Assembly (NCBI GenBank): GCA_029245345.1
Contig: JAQWPM010000021.1
Location: 372,001 to 436,000 of the forward strand
Direction of reading: 5' to 3'
Length of the DNA: 64,000 nucleotides
Source: Longimicrobiales bacterium
Lineage (GTDB): Bacteria; Gemmatimonadota; Gemmatimonadetes; Longimicrobiales; Gaopeijiaceae
Below, piece by piece: positions 3,998 to 10,675 of this stretch (the stretch's first letter is position 1; each line of letters begins with the position of its first letter). A program made the translations under genes and the position numbers. Under the pieces are notes generated by a model that did no database searches, had not been told where the DNA came from, and worked only from the letters and a program-made list of their open reading frames with translations.

Positions 3998-4870
3998 TTA
4001 TTCGCTCTCTTCGCGCACCAAGACTCCGTCCATCACCGCTTCGACGGGACCGCGCAGCACGACATCGAGGCCTTCCGAGACCGTGACCTGCAGGATGCCC
4101 CCAGGCATTTCCACGTCAATCGTACCCGGCTGTACTCTTCCCTCGACGACACTCGCGACCGCCACCGCGCATGAACTGGTACCCGAAGCACTGGTCCGCC
4201 CGACTCCCCGTTCCCAGATCAAAGCTTTGACCCGAGCCAGCCCGTCCGGATGCGCGAGCTGCATGTTTGCGCCGTGAGTCAGAGCAGGATGTGCCGCAAA
4301 GAAGGGGCCCAACTCGGCGAGCATCTCTTCTGACAATTCTGGAGAGAAGACAACCAGGTGCGGATTCCCGACAGAAACGGGAACGACGCGAAAAGAGGTC
4401 CCATTCGGCCCCAGCATCGACCCATCTGAGTCGATAGCCGACGCATCGAGGCCGACAGCCGCGGGGCCCACCCGGGCCAATCCCATCGCGACCGAAACGT
4501 CGTACGTACCATCCTGCTCACCGTGTACCGTCATGGACACCGTATCCCCGGCGACCTCTACATCGAACGGCTCGGAGCCGACCCGTCCCATCCGCAGGAG
4601 GTAGGAGGCCAGAATACGCAGGCCGTTGCCGCTGCGCTCGAACTCTCCACCATCCGGATTAAACATCCGGAGCGAGGGGCGCCCGGCGCCCGACAGAAGC
4701 ACCACAATGCCGTCGGAGCCCACTCCGCTGAACCGGTCGCACACCGCCCTGATGGCTGCCGGCGTGGCCGTCCAGTCGTCGCCTTCCTCGAAGACCAAAT
4801 AGTCGTTGCTAAGCCCATGTGCTTTGTAGAAACCGCGAGACAAGCGCGGACGAGTCAGCCAACGCGTCAT
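3998..4870 (-). CDS. DapF-family protein lacking both catalytic cysteines
   Basis: Diaminopimelate epimerase fold, 290 aa from the ATG at 4870 (a longer in-frame extension to 5026 exists but runs into the metH promoter). Family landmarks are present: FYKAHGLSNDYLVF at the start, GVGSDGIVVL, FNPDGGEFERSGNGLR, SVGNPHLVVF and WERGVGRTSASGTSSCA. In true DapF the two proton-transferring residues are cysteines in C-GNG-R and ACGTG. Here the first is Ser80 (RSGNGLR) and the second is Ser229 (TSASGTS). Serine cannot easily replace the thiol base, so this protein is unlikely to be a normal L,L-DAP epimerase. It may be another isomerase or dehydratase of the fold; proline-racemase relatives with Cys replaced are dehydratases. 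Divergent from metH. Confidence 0.75.
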   Translation of the reverse strand: MTRWLTRPRLSRGFYKAHGLSNDYLVFEEGDDWTATPAAIRAVCDRFSGVGSDGIVVLLSGAGRPSLRMFNPDGGEFERSGNGLRILASYLLRMGRVGSEPFDVEVAGDTVSMTVHGEQDGTYDVSVAMGLARVGPAAVGLDASAIDSDGSMLGPNGTSFRVVPVSVGNPHLVVFSPELSEEMLAELGPFFAAHPALTHGANMQLAHPDGLARVKALIWERGVGRTSASGTSSCAVAVASVVEGRVQPGTIDVEMPGGILQVTVSEGLDVVLRGPVEAVMDGVLVREESE

Positions 4871-5099: not shown

Positions 5100-8000
5100 G
5101 TGGCAGCAACGAAGAGCGGACTCACTCGGGCCGACCGGGGCGTCCTGATCAGGGAACACCTGACCAAACGCATTCTTGTGATCGACGGTGCCATGGGCAC
5201 CATGATCCAGCGGCACAAGTTCGAGGAAGAGGATTTCCGTGGTGAGCGCTTCGCTGACAGCGAAAGACTGCTCATGGGAGCGAACGACCTCCTCTGTCTC
5301 TCTCGCCCGGATGTAATTCGCGATATCCACGCGGAATACCTCGCGGCCGGAGCTGATCTCGTCGAAACCAACACGTTCAGCGCCAACCGGATCTCTCTTG
5401 AGGACTATGGGCTCCCAGAGATCGCGTTCGAGCTGAATCGGGATGCGGCTCGGCTGGCGAGAGAGGCTGCTGATACGGCAGAGGCTGCGGAACCTGGGCG
5501 ACCCCGCTGGGTCGCGGGCGCACTCGGGCCGACGAACCGGACGGCGTCCATTTCGCCCGATGTGGGCGACCCAGGTGCTCGGAACGTCACCTTCGACGAA
5601 CTCGTCACCGCTTATGTAGAACAAGCGCTCGGGCTCATCGACGGGGGCGCCGACCTCCTTCTGGTCGAGACCGCATTCGACACACTGAACGCCAAGGCCG
5701 CCCTCTTCGCGGTCTCGAAGGCTCTAGAGGAAACAGGCCTCGACATCCCGGTCATGATGTCTGGGACAATCACAGACCAGAGCGGTCGCACCTTGTCGGG
5801 GCAGACGCCTGAAGCATTCTACAATTCGGTCTCCCACGGAGTACATCCGGGCGCAGGGCGTCCGACTGGCCTTCTCAGCGTGGGTCTCAACTGCGCCCTC
5901 GGAATCGATCAGTTACGCCCGTACCTCAAGGAGCTGTCCGAGGTCGCCACGGTTCCAGTGAGTTGTTACCCGAATGCTGGCCTCCCCAACGAATTCGGGG
6001 AGTACGACGACACGCCGGAGCATATGGCGGACATGACCCGGCAGTTCGCCGAAGCGGGCTTCCTGAACATCGTCGGTGGCTGCTGCGGTACGACACCCGA
6101 TCATATCCGAGCAATCGCGAAGGCCGTGGCGGACGTCACGCCACGCGCCTTGCCTGATGTACCGGTCCGTACACGCCTCGCCGGTCTGGAGCCGCTGACA
6201 ATCGGGCCAGACTCTCTGTTCGTGAACGTCGGCGAGCGCACGAACGTGACCGGGTCCCGCCGCTTCGCTCGCCTCATCCAGGATGACGACTACGACACTG
6301 CCGTGGAGGTGGCCCGGCAGCAGGTTCGAGGTGGCGCCCAGGTCATCGACGTGAACATGGACGAGGGCTTGCTCGACTCTGTCGCTGCGATGCCGCGATT
6401 CCTCAACTTGCTCGCATCGGAACCGGAAATAGCTCGCATCCCGGTGATGGTCGACTCGTCCAACTGGGATGTGATCGAGGCCGGCCTCAAGACGCTTCAG
6501 GGCAAAGGCATCGTCAATTCTATCTCGCTGAAGGACGGCGAGCAGGAGTTTCGAGAGAGGGCTCGACTGGTTCGACGGTACGGTGCCGCGGCGGTGGTGA
6601 TGGCATTCGACGAAGACGGTCAGGCGGACACGGTGCAGCGTAAGATCGATATCTGCTCACGGGCCTATTCGGTCCTGCTCGAGGAAGGCTTCGCACCGGA
6701 GGACATCATCTTCGATCCGAACGTCTTCGCTGTCGCAACGGGAATCGAAGAGCATGAGCGATACGCGATCGCCTTCATCGAGGCCGTGCGAGGCGTCAAA
6801 GCGGCTTGCCCGCACTCGCTCACCTCGGGCGGCATCAGCAACGTTTCGTTCTCGTTTCGTGGCTCACCCGAAGTGCGGGAAGCCATGCATACAGCGTTCC
6901 TTTATCACGCGATCGCGGCCGGGCTCGACATGGGCATCGTGAATGCCGGCGCACTGCCTGTATACGACGACATCCCCAAGGATCTAATCGTTCCTGTTGA
7001 AGACGTTCTCTTCGCTCGGAACCCCGAAGCCACGGATGCTCTCACGCAGATCGCGGGAGAACGCACTGGCACCACGGAGCGTCGCGTACATGAGGACTTG
7101 TCGTGGAGGGATCTCGACATAACGGCTCGGCTTCAGCACGCCCTCGTACAGGGTATCGACGAATACGTCGAGATCGACGCAGAAGAGGCGCGTGTGTCTC
7201 TCCCTCGAGCGCTCGATGTCATCGAGGGACCGCTCATGGACGGCATGAACGAAGTCGGCGACCGATTCGGCAGTGGACGCATGTTCTTGCCACAGGTCGT
7301 GAAGAGCGCACGCGTCATGAAGAAGGCCGTCGCCCACCTGGTCCCGTACCTCGAAGCAGAGAAGACGAGCACTGAGGACAAAGGCCGGATTCTCATGGCC
7401 ACTGTGAAAGGTGACGTCCATGACATCGGCAAGAACATCGTCGGGGTCGTCCTGCAGTGTAACGGTTATGTAGTCATCGATTTGGGCGTGATGGTGCCGG
7501 GAGAGAAGATCCTCGACCGCGCCCGGGAAGAGAGAGTGGATATCATCGGTCTATCGGGGCTCATCACCCCCTCACTCGACCAGATGGTAAGCGTGGCGAA
7601 AGAGATGCAACGGACCGGCTTTGAAGTGCCGTTGCTGATCGGTGGCGCCACAACGTCGAAGGTCCACACCGCGGTGAAAATCGAAGAGTGTTATGCTGGA
7701 CCCACGGTACACGTGCTCGACGCTTCCAGGGCCGTTGGGGTCGTGTCGACGCTCCTTGATGACAAACGCCGAGCGCCGTTCATCGCTAATCTCGCCGTGG
7801 AATACGAAGCTGTGCGCAAACGCCGAGCCGAACGGTCCGCAAGAACACCCCTTACACCGATCGCCGCCGCACGAAGACGCGCACGCTCCTTCGATTGGGC
7901 TTCGTCTCCCCCGCAGCGCCCGAAACAGCTTGGCGTTCATCAGCTGGACCTCAGCGTAGAGGAACTCCGACCCTACATCGACTGGACGCCCTTCTTCCAG

Positions 8001-8831
8001 GCGTGGGAACTCGCGGGCAAGCACCCGGCGATCCTGAACGACGCGGTCGTCGGCGCGCAGGCTAAAAGCCTCTTGTCAGATGCCGAGGAGATGCTGGATC
8101 GGATGGCTTCAGACGATCGAATCACCCCGAAGGCCGTCGTCGGTCTCTTCCCAGCGAATAGCACTGGGGACGACATCGACATCTTCACCGACGAGACGCG
8201 AGACGAAACGCGCACGACGTGCCATCACGTCCGGCAGCAGTTCGCCAAGCAGGACCGTGCCGCGTCTTGTCTAGCTGATTTCGTGGCTCCGGTCGGCACA
8301 CCGGACTGGATCGGTGGCTTCGTCGTCACTGCCGGACTCGGCGTCCATGAACTCGTGGCCGAAGCGGAGAGCGAACACGACGACTACACCGCCATCCTCG
8401 TAAAATCGGTGGCCGACCGACTCGCGGAGGCCGCCGCGGAAGTGATGCACGAGAGGGTGCGATGCGAAATTTGGGCCTATGCACCAAGCGAGTCCCACTC
8501 GAACGACAATCTGATCGCGGAAGCCTACCAGGGGATACGACCCGCCCCCGGCTACCCGGCGTGCCCAGACCACACTGAAAAGCGAACGCTGTTCGAGCTA
8601 TTGGATGCAGAGGAAGCCCTCGGCGTGACACTCACCGAGAGTTTTGCCATGGCACCGGCTGCGTCGGTTTCGGGCTGGTATCTCGCCCATCCGGAAGCCC
8701 ATTACTTCGGGATCGGACGCATGGGGCGTGATCAGGTTGAGGATTACGCGACCCGGAAGGGCTGGACCATCGAAAAAGTTGAGAAATGGCTCTCCCCCAA
8801 CCTCGGGTACGATCCGGAGCGTGACTCATGA
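5100..8831 (+). CDS. metH: Cobalamin-dependent methionine synthase
   Basis: Full-length four-module MetH (1243 aa; E. coli enzyme 1227). It transfers a methyl group from methyltetrahydrofolate via cobalamin to homocysteine in the cytosol. Modules in order: homocysteine-binding barrel (about 20-335) with zinc cysteines in GLNCALG (near 265) and [10 protein letters not shown] (near 326-327); pterin-binding barrel (about 360-620) beginning [14 protein letters not shown]; cobalamin-binding module (about 650-890) with the base-off motif DVHDIGKN (near 771, His ligand) and [11 protein letters not shown]; and the reactivation domain (about 920-1235) with [12 protein letters not shown] near 1145. The GTG at 5100 follows AGGGGA, which lies directly behind the leader terminator. 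It overlaps the next gene by 4 nt. Regulation by the SAM-II leader is expected. Confidence 0.97.
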
Positions 8832-10675
8832 AGGAGCTCATCCTAGACGGGCGCGTCCACGTTTTTGACGGAGCCATGGGAACGTTGCTCTACAATCGCG
8901 GCGTGTTCGTGAACATCTGCTACGACGAGCTCAACGTCGGGCGCCCGGACATCGTGAGGGAGATTCACGAGGAGTACGTGGCCGCCGGCGCCGAGGTACT
9001 CGAGACGAATACGTTCGGGGCCAATCCGGTGAAGCTCTCTTCCTACGGACTGGCAGAGCGCACTGAAGAAATCAACGAAGCGGCGGGGCACCTAGCGAAA
9101 CAGGCCGCGGGTAGCTTCGCGAAGGTCGCCGGAGCGATCGGACCCTTGGGAATCCGAATCGAGCCATGGGGACCTACTGCTCGCGAAGAAGCCGTCGATT
9201 TCTTCAAGCGGCAGGTCGCTGGTCTTGTCTCGGGTGGAGTGGATGGCTTCGTCCTCGAGACGTTCTCCGACCTCACGGAGATCGGGTGCGCGGTCGCTGC
9301 CGTGCGAGAGCTGTCGGATCTGCCGATCGTGGCACAAATGACGGTCGGGAGAGGCGGGAAAACCGCATATGGGAACGACCCTGTACAAATCGCTCAGGAA
9401 CTCGCCCAGCACGGCGCGGACGTGATCGGACTCAATTGCTCGGTAGGGCCCGCAGTGATGCTGGACGCGATCGAGGAGATGGCTGAGGCTACGAACCTGC
9501 CCCTGATCGCTCAGCCGAACGCAGGGCTGCCCCGCACCGTGCGCGACCGAAAAATCTACCTGGCCAGTCCAGAGTACATGGCCCAATACGCCCGCCGAAT
9601 GATCGACGCGGGCGCGCGTTTCGTTGGCGGGTGCTGCGGCACCACTCCGGAACATGTGAAGCAGGTACGAAATGCGGTCACAGCAGCCCAGCCCCGACAC
9701 GCGACGATCACCCCGTCAGTAAATGTCCACCGTGGCGAGGTGGCCCGCGAACCGGTGCCGCTCGAAGCCCGATCTGCTTGGGGTCGAAAGCTCGCTCGTG
9801 GTGAGACGGTGGTCTCCGTCGAGATCCTGCCTCCGCGCGGATGGGGAAAGAGCGCGGTAGTCGAGCCAGCCCGAGCGCTCAAGGTGGCGGGGGTGGACAC
9901 CCTCGCACTGGTGGACAATCCCAGATCGCTCAGCCGCATGGGCGCTATCTCGGCCGCACAGATCGTGGAGCGCGAGGTGGGCATCGAGGCGCTGGTCCAC
10001 TACACGTGCCGTGATCGAAACATGCTGGGAATGATCTCAGATTTGCTCGGAGCCGCCGCTGCCGGAGTGCGTAACGTACTCGTGGTGAGTGGAGACCCGC
10101 CGCTTCAGGGCCCCTACCCCGACTCGACCGCAGTCTTCGATATCGACTCGATCGGACTGACCAACGTGGTGAACGGACTCAACCGGGGGATCGACCCCGG
10201 CGGCAACTCGATTGGGGCGCCCACGGAGTTCGTGCAGGGTGTGGCCGCGAATCCCGGAGCTGTAGATCTCGACCGCGAAATCGAGCGATTTGGGTACAAG
10301 GTGGAGGCGGGTGCGGACTTTGCCGTTACCCAGCCGGTCTTTGATCCCGATGCGTTGGAACGCTTCATGGAACGCGCGGCAGACCACGCGATCCCACTCG
10401 TTGCGGGCATCTGGCCTTTCTTGAACCTGCGGAACGCCGAGTTCTTGGCCTACGAGGTGCCTGGCGTGGTCGTTCCCGAGTCGGTGGTGGAGCGCATGCG
10501 CGCCGCTCAAGAGAAGGGAGACGAGGCGGCGTTGGAGGAGGGTGTATCCATCGCGGTCGAGATGATCGAGGCAGTGAAGCCGCTGGTGCGAGGATTCCAC
10601 CTCAACGCACCGAGCCGACGCGTGGATATCGCCCTCCGCGTGCTTAGGCAGGCCGGCGTAAGCTCTACGGCCTAG
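8828..10675 (+). CDS. Bifunctional homocysteine S-methyltransferase / methylenetetrahydrofolate reductase
   Basis: Two-domain protein of 615 aa, similar in build to YitJ. Residues about 1-300 form a homocysteine methyltransferase barrel ([23 protein letters not shown], zinc-binding [10 protein letters not shown] near 267). Residues about 325-605 are a MetF-type 5,10-methylenetetrahydrofolate reductase, opening [12 protein letters not shown] with the active-site glutamate and containing VSGDPP and the family's TQPVFDP motif. MetF makes the methyl-THF that MetH consumes. The ATG overlaps the metH stop (ATGA), so the two are coupled and share the SAM-II control. The first domain could be an alternative, B12-independent route to methionine using another methyl donor; which donor cannot be read from sequence. 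Confidence 0.92.

What the first reader, a model, noticed from the sequence alone, without database searches (positions are those of the whole stretch)
3998..4870. DapF-family protein with both catalytic cysteines changed to serine
The catalytic pair of DapF is Cys/Cys at the start of GNG and GTG loops. Here both are serine (Ser80 in RSGNGLR, Ser229 in TSASGTS), while the surrounding fold signatures are intact. A two-base racemase mechanism needs thiols of matched acidity, so another chemistry or a different substrate is implied. In the related proline-racemase family a Cys-to-Ser/Thr change gives a dehydratase. The gene stands next to metH and the lpt genes, not in a lysine operon.
Basis: partly seen in the sequence, partly recalled or inferred. 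Interest (0 to 1): 0.55.

Follow-up and report, generated by a model that had tools for sequence, protein, structure and literature searches.

The report
DapF epimerase with two catalytic serines
This gene belongs to a large, little-noticed group of bacterial enzymes that probably make a cell-wall building block with two serines where textbook versions need two cysteines.

Summary
In detail: the ORF (minus strand, 4870..3998) scores as DapF (TIGR00652 175.7 bits, cut-off 114.65) with Ser80 and Ser229 in place of both catalytic cysteines. It is not a local oddity. All 51 DapFs read from the window's family and 5 of 5 from sister families are Ser/Ser; 41 read from the rest of the phylum are Cys/Cys. 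Named Ser/Ser relatives carry 17 phylum labels. Across 136 rows (131 distinct) Ser80, Ser229 and Gln204 never vary and Ser232 varies once; all 47 Cys/Cys rows have Gly at 232. No mixed pair was seen. Residues known to hold diaminopimelate are kept. In 20 of 26 named Ser/Ser genomes it is the only DapF. Five of these (a sixth is borderline) have DapB, DapL, LysA and MurE but no Ddh, one of them a single 2.35 Mb chromosome record. In 7 of 7 Bacteroidota loci it lies near dapL and/or lysA. The best reading is a real diaminopimelate epimerase with a Ser/Ser pair, not a new reaction. Weak points: no assay found, Cys-to-Ser mutants of a related enzyme keep under 0.1% activity, and the window's own sub-clade lacks recognisable DapA and DapB.

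The parts
3998..4870 (-). dapF-like gene, 290 aa, Ser/Ser type
   Evidence: translation; TIGR00652 175.7 bits over cut-off 114.65; PF01678 128.5 bits; AlphaFold2 model pLDDT 93.6, best match DapF 8qzy Z 33.5, rmsd 2.2 over 271 residues
4631..4633 (-). Ser80 codon (AGC), at the place of the first catalytic Cys; just before helix 81-93 in the model
   Evidence: Ser in 136 of 136 Ser/Ser-clade rows, Cys in 47 of 47 comparison rows
4184..4186 (-). Ser229 codon (TCG), at the place of the second catalytic Cys; just before helix 230-242 in the model
   Evidence: Ser in 136 of 136, Cys in 47 of 47
4175..4177 (-). Ser232 codon (AGT); Gly in the Cys/Cys rows, the i+3 partner of the second catalytic residue
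   Evidence: Ser in 135 of 136, Gly in 47 of 47 comparison rows
4259..4261 (-). Gln204 codon (CAG), another clade-diagnostic substitution
   Evidence: Gln in 136 of 136, in 0 of 47 comparison rows
4637..4660 (-). segment with Asn71 (distal diaminopimelate contact) and Glu78 (partner of the contact Arg)
   Evidence: both invariant in 136 rows; residue roles from PMC12039745, matched by the alignment
4208..4213 (-). Glu220-Arg221, the pair that binds the distal amino and carboxyl groups in canonical DapF
   Evidence: E in 136 of 136, R in 135 of 136; roles from PMC12039745
1325..3969 (+). lptF and lptG, convergent with dapF (context, not part of the function)
   Evidence: PF03739 250.7 and 217.1 bits; lptG convergent with dapF in 54 of 86 sequences examined, the window included
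5100..8831 (+). metH (context)
   Evidence: Pfam Met_synt_B12, S-methyl_trans, Pterin_bind, B12-binding

Best explanation
It is a diaminopimelate epimerase that has swapped its Cys/Cys acid-base pair for Ser/Ser. Ser80 and Ser229 sit at the N-termini of two helices on opposite faces of the alpha-carbon; one takes the alpha-proton and the other gives a proton to the opposite face, turning L,L- into meso-diaminopimelate for the cell wall and lysine. Shown here: the residues, the fold, the kept substrate-binding residues, the fixed co-substitutions Ser232 and Gln204, sole-copy status, and gene neighbours in some relatives. Inferred: that it turns over L,L-diaminopimelate, and that Ser232 (i+3 to Ser229) helps orient or polarise Ser229, as proposed for the Ser/Asn i+3 motif in serine-bearing proline racemase superfamily enzymes.
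For: Family score and fold. Of seven substrate-site residues compared, Asn71, Glu78, Asn202 and Glu220 are invariant in 136 of 136 rows; Asn22 in 135 (one gap), Asn169 and Arg221 in 135. Only DapF in 20 of 26 named Ser/Ser genomes and in the window's genome. Ddh over cut-off in 1 of 28 Ser/Ser-only genomes. LysA over cut-off in 21 of those 28. MurE over cut-off in 28 of 28 genomes searched, 26 of them Ser/Ser-only, with a DNPR motif found in 24 of 28; the window genome's MurE is over the cut-off of a diaminopimelate-ligase equivalog (468.7 vs 373). Genomes G197, G200, G201, G202 and G203 carry DapB, DapL and LysA over curated cut-offs with only Ser/Ser DapF and no Ddh over cut-off; G203 (OX638327.1) is one chromosome record. 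G190 is a sixth, borderline for LysA (298.3, 297.3, cut-off 297.9). dapL and/or lysA lie in all 7 Bacteroidota loci and dapL in one Chloroflexota locus (DapL over the TIGR03542 cut-off, 606-624 bits, in the four scanned, and over NF006756 in the Chloroflexota one). Precedent: a Ser/Cys 4-hydroxyproline epimerase is active (PMC4113996, passages).
Against: No Ser/Ser DapF assay turned up in my searches. A serine hydroxyl is a far weaker acid than a thiol, and Cys-to-Ser mutants of PddB keep under 0.1% activity, with similar loss cited there for M. tuberculosis DapF (PMC8225329, passages) and a great loss in HisR (PMC11602996, passages). The window's own sub-clade shows no DapB and no DapA over cut-off, so this organism's source of L,L-diaminopimelate is unclear. 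LysA is below cut-off or absent in 7 of 28 Ser/Ser-only genomes, and DapL is at curated level in only 9 of 24 checked. Three Pseudomonas, one Planctomycete and one Myxococcota-labelled genome carry a Cys/Cys copy as well, where the Ser/Ser copy may do something else. In 71 of 79 Ser/Ser loci no clear dapL or lysA lies nearby (one of the 71, L141, has a 41% identical aminotransferase).
Confidence: 0.65

Rival explanations
1. The Ser/Ser clade has a different reaction or substrate (for example a dehydratase or epimerase of another diamino acid), and an unrelated enzyme makes meso-diaminopimelate in these genomes.
For: Serine is a poor base; Ser/Thr in the proline racemase superfamily gives a dehydratase (PMC4113996, passages). 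Gln204 and Ser232 changes are fixed or nearly so. Some genomes keep a Cys/Cys copy too. The window's sub-clade keeps the gene although DapA and DapB are not found.
Against: Diaminopimelate-binding residues are kept; dapL/lysA in all 7 Bacteroidota loci; sole DapF in five genomes with DapL, LysA and MurE and no Ddh.
Confidence: 0.2
2. A different thiol does the work: Cys44 (invariant) or Cys234 supplies the base.
For: Cys44 is Cys in 136 of 136 Ser/Ser rows and Cys234 in 131.
Against: Cys44 is also present in 36 of 47 Cys/Cys rows, so it is not a replacement; Cys234 is lost in 5 rows. In the model Cys44 ends helix 37-44 and Cys234 lies inside helix 230-242, not at the helix starts.
Confidence: 0.06
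3. A dead or regulatory paralogue that only binds diaminopimelate.
For: Both known catalytic residues are changed.
Against: Serines, not random residues, are fixed at both sites in 136 of 136 rows with pairwise identity down to 30%, and it is the only copy in 20 of 26 named genomes.
Confidence: 0.05

Closest known systems
Canonical DapF (TIGR00652; Anabaena, E. coli, H. influenzae enzymes)
   Same: Whole-length homology, fold (Z 33.5 to 8qzy), substrate-contact residues, often a single copy, lysine/cell-wall pathway company in several relatives.
   Different: Both catalytic cysteines are serine; Gly to Ser at i+3 of the second one; Gln at 204; the Cys that follows the GN(A/G)x(R/L) stretch in all 47 Cys/Cys rows is Ile/Val.
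4-hydroxyproline 2-epimerase with Ser/Cys pair (proline racemase superfamily, PMC4113996)
   Same: Same two-domain fold class (an A. vitis hydroxyproline epimerase, 4lb0, Z 23.0; probably the Ser/Cys one, not checked); a natural serine acts as one base in a two-base epimerase.
   Different: About 14% identity to 4lb0, only one serine, proline-type substrate.
trans-3-hydroxy-L-proline dehydratase with Ser/Thr pair (PMC4113996)
   Same: Cysteine replaced at both places in the same fold class.
   Different: Elimination reaction; the second residue is Thr and non-catalytic; no shared sequence family hit.
CntK / HisR histidine racemases and PddB (DapF-like, Cys/Cys)
   Same: DapF-like fold; C-to-S mutants of HisR and PddB are the yardstick for the cost of serine.
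   Different: They keep the cysteines and changed substrate; the present clade seems to do the reverse.

Membership tests
DapF (diaminopimelate epimerase, EC 5.1.1.7) | Scores over the curated family cut-off | tested here: met
   TIGR00652 175.7 bits vs 114.65
DapF (diaminopimelate epimerase, EC 5.1.1.7) | Two-domain DapF fold | tested here: met
   AlphaFold2 pLDDT 93.6; 8qzy Z 33.5, rmsd 2.2, 271 aligned
DapF (diaminopimelate epimerase, EC 5.1.1.7) | Catalytic Cys/Cys pair | tested here: not met
   Ser80 and Ser229; so it is filed as a variant, not as a canonical member
DapF (diaminopimelate epimerase, EC 5.1.1.7) | Residues that hold the distal amino acid part of diaminopimelate | tested here: met
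   Asn71, Asn202, Glu220 in 136 of 136; Asn169, Arg221 in 135, all present in the window protein; roles from PMC12039745
DapF (diaminopimelate epimerase, EC 5.1.1.7) | Genome needs L,L- to meso-diaminopimelate conversion and has no other known route | tested here: inconclusive
   Holds for five Ser/Ser-only genomes with DapB, DapL, LysA and no Ddh (DapA not tested there); in the window's own genome MurE and LysA are present but DapA and DapB were not found
DapF (diaminopimelate epimerase, EC 5.1.1.7) | Measured epimerase activity | not testable with these tools
   needs purified protein
Proline racemase superfamily | Sequence family match | tested here: not met
   only PF01678 reported at E 0.001; fold similarity only
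PhzF-like isomerases | Sequence family match | tested here: not met
   only PF01678 reported at E 0.001; PhzF structures Z about 24

The most novel reading that the evidence does not exclude
A cofactor-independent amino-acid epimerase that works with two serine hydroxyls in place of two thiols. In this reading Ser232 tunes Ser229, and the enzyme serves as the only diaminopimelate epimerase in bacteria of many phyla. Such an enzyme could not be switched off by active-site disulfide formation and should resist thiol-directed DapF inhibitors.
Probability: 0.55. Interest if true: 0.75.

Novelty: new variant of a known kind. Interest (0 to 1): 0.62.

Why it matters
The accepted mechanism rests on a thiol-thiolate pair that takes a proton of pKa about 29 (PMC12039745, passages). 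A widespread natural Ser/Ser version would show that helix dipoles and active-site closure can do this with hydroxyls, and would give a matched system to test how enzymes activate weak bases. Practically, the curated model accepts these proteins as DapF by score alone, and the aziridine inhibitors of DapF bind the cysteines, so such organisms might be misannotated or insensitive. C. glutamicum DapF is switched off by a disulfide between the catalytic cysteines (PMC5296763, passages); a Ser/Ser type cannot be.

Tried and rejected
Second, cysteine-bearing DapF in the window's genome: none found. Ddh as a bypass: over cut-off in one of 28 Ser/Ser-only genomes; the weak hit in the window's genome is an oxidoreductase-like ORF beside a kdsB-like ORF, as I read the sequences by eye (names recalled, no family search). 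Link to LPS export: lptF/lptG lie next door, but dapF converges on lptG in 54 of 86 sequences examined and runs the other way in 3 (the set holds some genes twice, loci with short flanks and other families), so I do not expect a shared transcript at the window. A DapA-like/LysA-like gene pair in the window's genome (G000 contig C2) was looked at and seems to sit in a transporter and dehydrogenase cluster (read by eye), so it was not counted as lysine synthesis. Plasmid-borne relatives: the 20 listed of 100 plasmid records are all under 34% identity; the other 80 were not viewed. A solved Ser/Ser structure: 17 distinct sequences matched; I viewed the residues of six, none Ser/Ser; entries named C73S, C217S, C72S, C67S or C209S are engineered mutants. 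Literature: seven searches of the open PubMed Central library, partly with capped listings, showed no paper that by title and start of abstract is about a natural Ser/Ser DapF; subscription papers are mostly not held. Cell-wall chemistry of Longimicrobium-type bacteria: one unrelated paper, and an earlier search gave nothing useful.

Limits. The named set was found partly with a SGNGLR pattern, so Ser80 there is partly selected; Ser229, Ser232 and Gln204 were not in the patterns. The tree is a quick one without bootstraps; it leaves out 19 named loci as near copies and has only 17 Cys/Cys rows, 16 from this phylum; five Cys/Cys second copies were meant to enter it but a script pattern missed them (they are). 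The DNPR count is a text pattern that found nothing fitting in 4 of 28 genomes (G185, G197, G199, G208). In one search five sequences occur twice (136 rows, 131 distinct). In the same class only 36 of 98 genomes with a hit were read.

Full report
Observation. The ORF lies on the minus strand, ATG at 4870, stop at 3998-4000, 290 aa. It matches DapF over the curated cut-off and Pfam DAP_epimerase. Aligned to solved DapFs, the two catalytic cysteine positions are Ser80 and Ser229.

How far it reaches. A DapF search of 58 genomes of the window's family (its own included) found hits in 56; in three of them the hit is in two pieces of one frame, and no genome shows two separate genes. I read 51 of those 56 (own genome plus loci L003-L052): all 51 are Ser/Ser. 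In the same order, 5 of 5 with a hit in the sample (two other families) are Ser/Ser (L058, L060, L063-L065). In the rest of the class I read 36 of 98 genomes with a hit, and in another class 5 of 5; all 41 are Cys/Cys. So, as far as sampled, the change is fixed in one order of the phylum (Gemmatimonadota, by the record titles of named relatives).

Beyond the phylum. A scan of named genomes with an alignment of Ser/Ser proteins (A1) returned 80 loci; 79 are Ser/Ser and one Cys/Cys. The tree prints 17 phylum labels for Ser/Ser rows, among them Nitrospirota, Bacteroidota, Aquificota, Planctomycetota, Latescibacterota, Rokuibacteriota, Methylomirabilota and Pseudomonadota; most are MAG records and some labels may be wrong. 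With the catalytic columns left out, the 80 Ser/Ser rows form one side of a branch (SH-aLRT 100) against 17 Cys/Cys rows. That shows a clade relative to these rows, not relative to all DapFs. The Cys/Cys proteins of the same class are more distant from the Ser/Ser ones (27% mean identity) than those of the other class are (33%), so the Ser/Ser gene may have come in by transfer; I did not test this.

Sequence constraint. Over 136 Ser/Ser rows (131 distinct) and 47 Cys/Cys rows: Ser80 and Ser229 in 136 of 136 and in none of the 47; Gln204 in 136 and 0; Ser232 in 135 and 0 (Gly in all 47). Position 86, Cys in all 47, is Ile or Val in all 136. No mixed Ser/Cys pair occurs in these rows. Codons at site 80 are AGY in 109 and TCN in 27; moving between these codon sets needs two base changes, so repeated retention of Ser speaks for selection. 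Pairwise identity goes down to 30%.

Substrate site. In Anabaena DapF the distal half of diaminopimelate is held by Asn66, Asn164, Asn197, Glu215 and Arg216, with a Glu that pairs with the Arg, and Asn13 near the proximal amine (PMC12039745, passages). The counterparts here, by the alignment, are Asn71, Asn169, Asn202, Glu220, Arg221, Glu78 and Asn22, kept in 135 or 136 of 136 rows. This argues for the same substrate. The same paper reports that the second catalytic sulfur is within hydrogen-bond distance of the backbone amide of Gly227, the i+3 residue; that is position 232, which is Ser in this clade. In serine-bearing proline racemase superfamily enzymes the catalytic Ser is positioned by an Asn three residues on (PMC4113996, passages). 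The likeness of the two i+3 arrangements is my inference.

Genome logic. Of 27 genomes reached from named loci, 26 have Ser/Ser DapF; in 20 of these it is the only DapF. Of the six with two copies, five have a Cys/Cys second copy and one (G196) has two Ser/Ser copies. Over 28 Ser/Ser-only genomes (19 named, 9 from the window's order): Ddh over cut-off in 1 (G192); LysA over cut-off in 21 and detectable in 26. Of 24 tested for DapL, five pass TIGR03540, and in four more the protein near dapF passes TIGR03542. MurE passes in 28 of 28 genomes tested (26 Ser/Ser-only) and DapB in 21 of 26 Ser/Ser-only. Five genomes (G197, G200-G203) hold DapB, DapL and LysA over curated cut-offs, no Ddh over cut-off, and no DapF but the Ser/Ser one. 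G190 is a sixth, but its LysA scores 298.3 in one search and 297.3 in another against a cut-off of 297.9. G203 (OX638327.1) is a single chromosome record of 2,346,994 bases, so a missing contig is an unlikely excuse. DapL makes L,L-diaminopimelate (established knowledge), so an epimerase is needed.

Neighbours. In Tangfeifania diversioriginum (G190) and a Bacteroidia genome (G205) the order is lysA, Ser/Ser dapF, then dapL on the other strand; G189 and G192 have dapF beside dapL. In all 7 Bacteroidota loci of the named set dapL and/or lysA lies within the locus, and in the Chloroflexota locus L161 dapL; in the other 71 of 79 Ser/Ser loci I found no clear case. At the window the neighbours are lptF, lptG, metH and an S-methyltransferase/MTHFR fusion; lptG converges with dapF in 54 of 86 sequences examined, and dapF is turned round in place in 3.

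The window's own organism. Its MurE passes a diaminopimelate-ligase equivalog and LysA is strong (483 bits), but no DapB was found in it and five relatives (PF05173 in all six; TIGR00036 also in four), and DapA is below cut-off in the same six. Other family members have DapB and DapA, in G014 with dapD beside them (NF008808 280 vs 204, though below the TIGR00965 cut-off). Either this sub-clade takes up diaminopimelate or the enzymes have diverged. The inference of function is thus stronger for the clade than for this one gene.

Judgement. What it works like: a diaminopimelate epimerase (0.65). Membership: it meets the family score, fold and substrate-site features but fails the Cys/Cys feature, so it is a variant, not a canonical DapF. 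Against: no assay found, and the large cost of Cys-to-Ser in known enzymes (PMC8225329; PMC11602996).

Noticed in passing
window genome G000 and relatives G013, G020, G024, G041, G049: No DapB by PF05173 and no DapA over cut-off, although LysA and MurE are over cut-off in the four checked (G000, G013, G020, G049); a close relative, G014, has dapB, dapA and dapD side by side. Looks like loss of the start of the pathway in one sub-clade.
   Followed up: partly
L025, L027, L103 (DapF region): dapF is inverted in place between lptG and metH compared with the window and most other loci.
   Followed up: partly
L124, L171 (Dadabacteria, Hydrogenedens): Ser/Ser dapF lies near genes that look, from their first residues read by eye, like futalosine-pathway (menaquinone) genes; no family search was made.
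   Followed up: no
L139, L151, L181 (Pseudomonas): Three Pseudomonas genomes carry a Ser/Ser copy beside a normal Cys/Cys DapF; its role there is open.
   Followed up: partly
L110, L114: Contigs labelled Gammaproteobacteria encode DapFs much like those of the window's family (L110 falls inside it in the tree), so the MAG labels may be wrong.
   Followed up: no
8828-10672: Fusion of a homocysteine S-methyltransferase domain with a methylenetetrahydrofolate reductase domain, directly after metH.
   Followed up: no
L284, L289 (Trueperaceae genome G196): Two Ser/Ser DapF genes in one genome.
   Followed up: no
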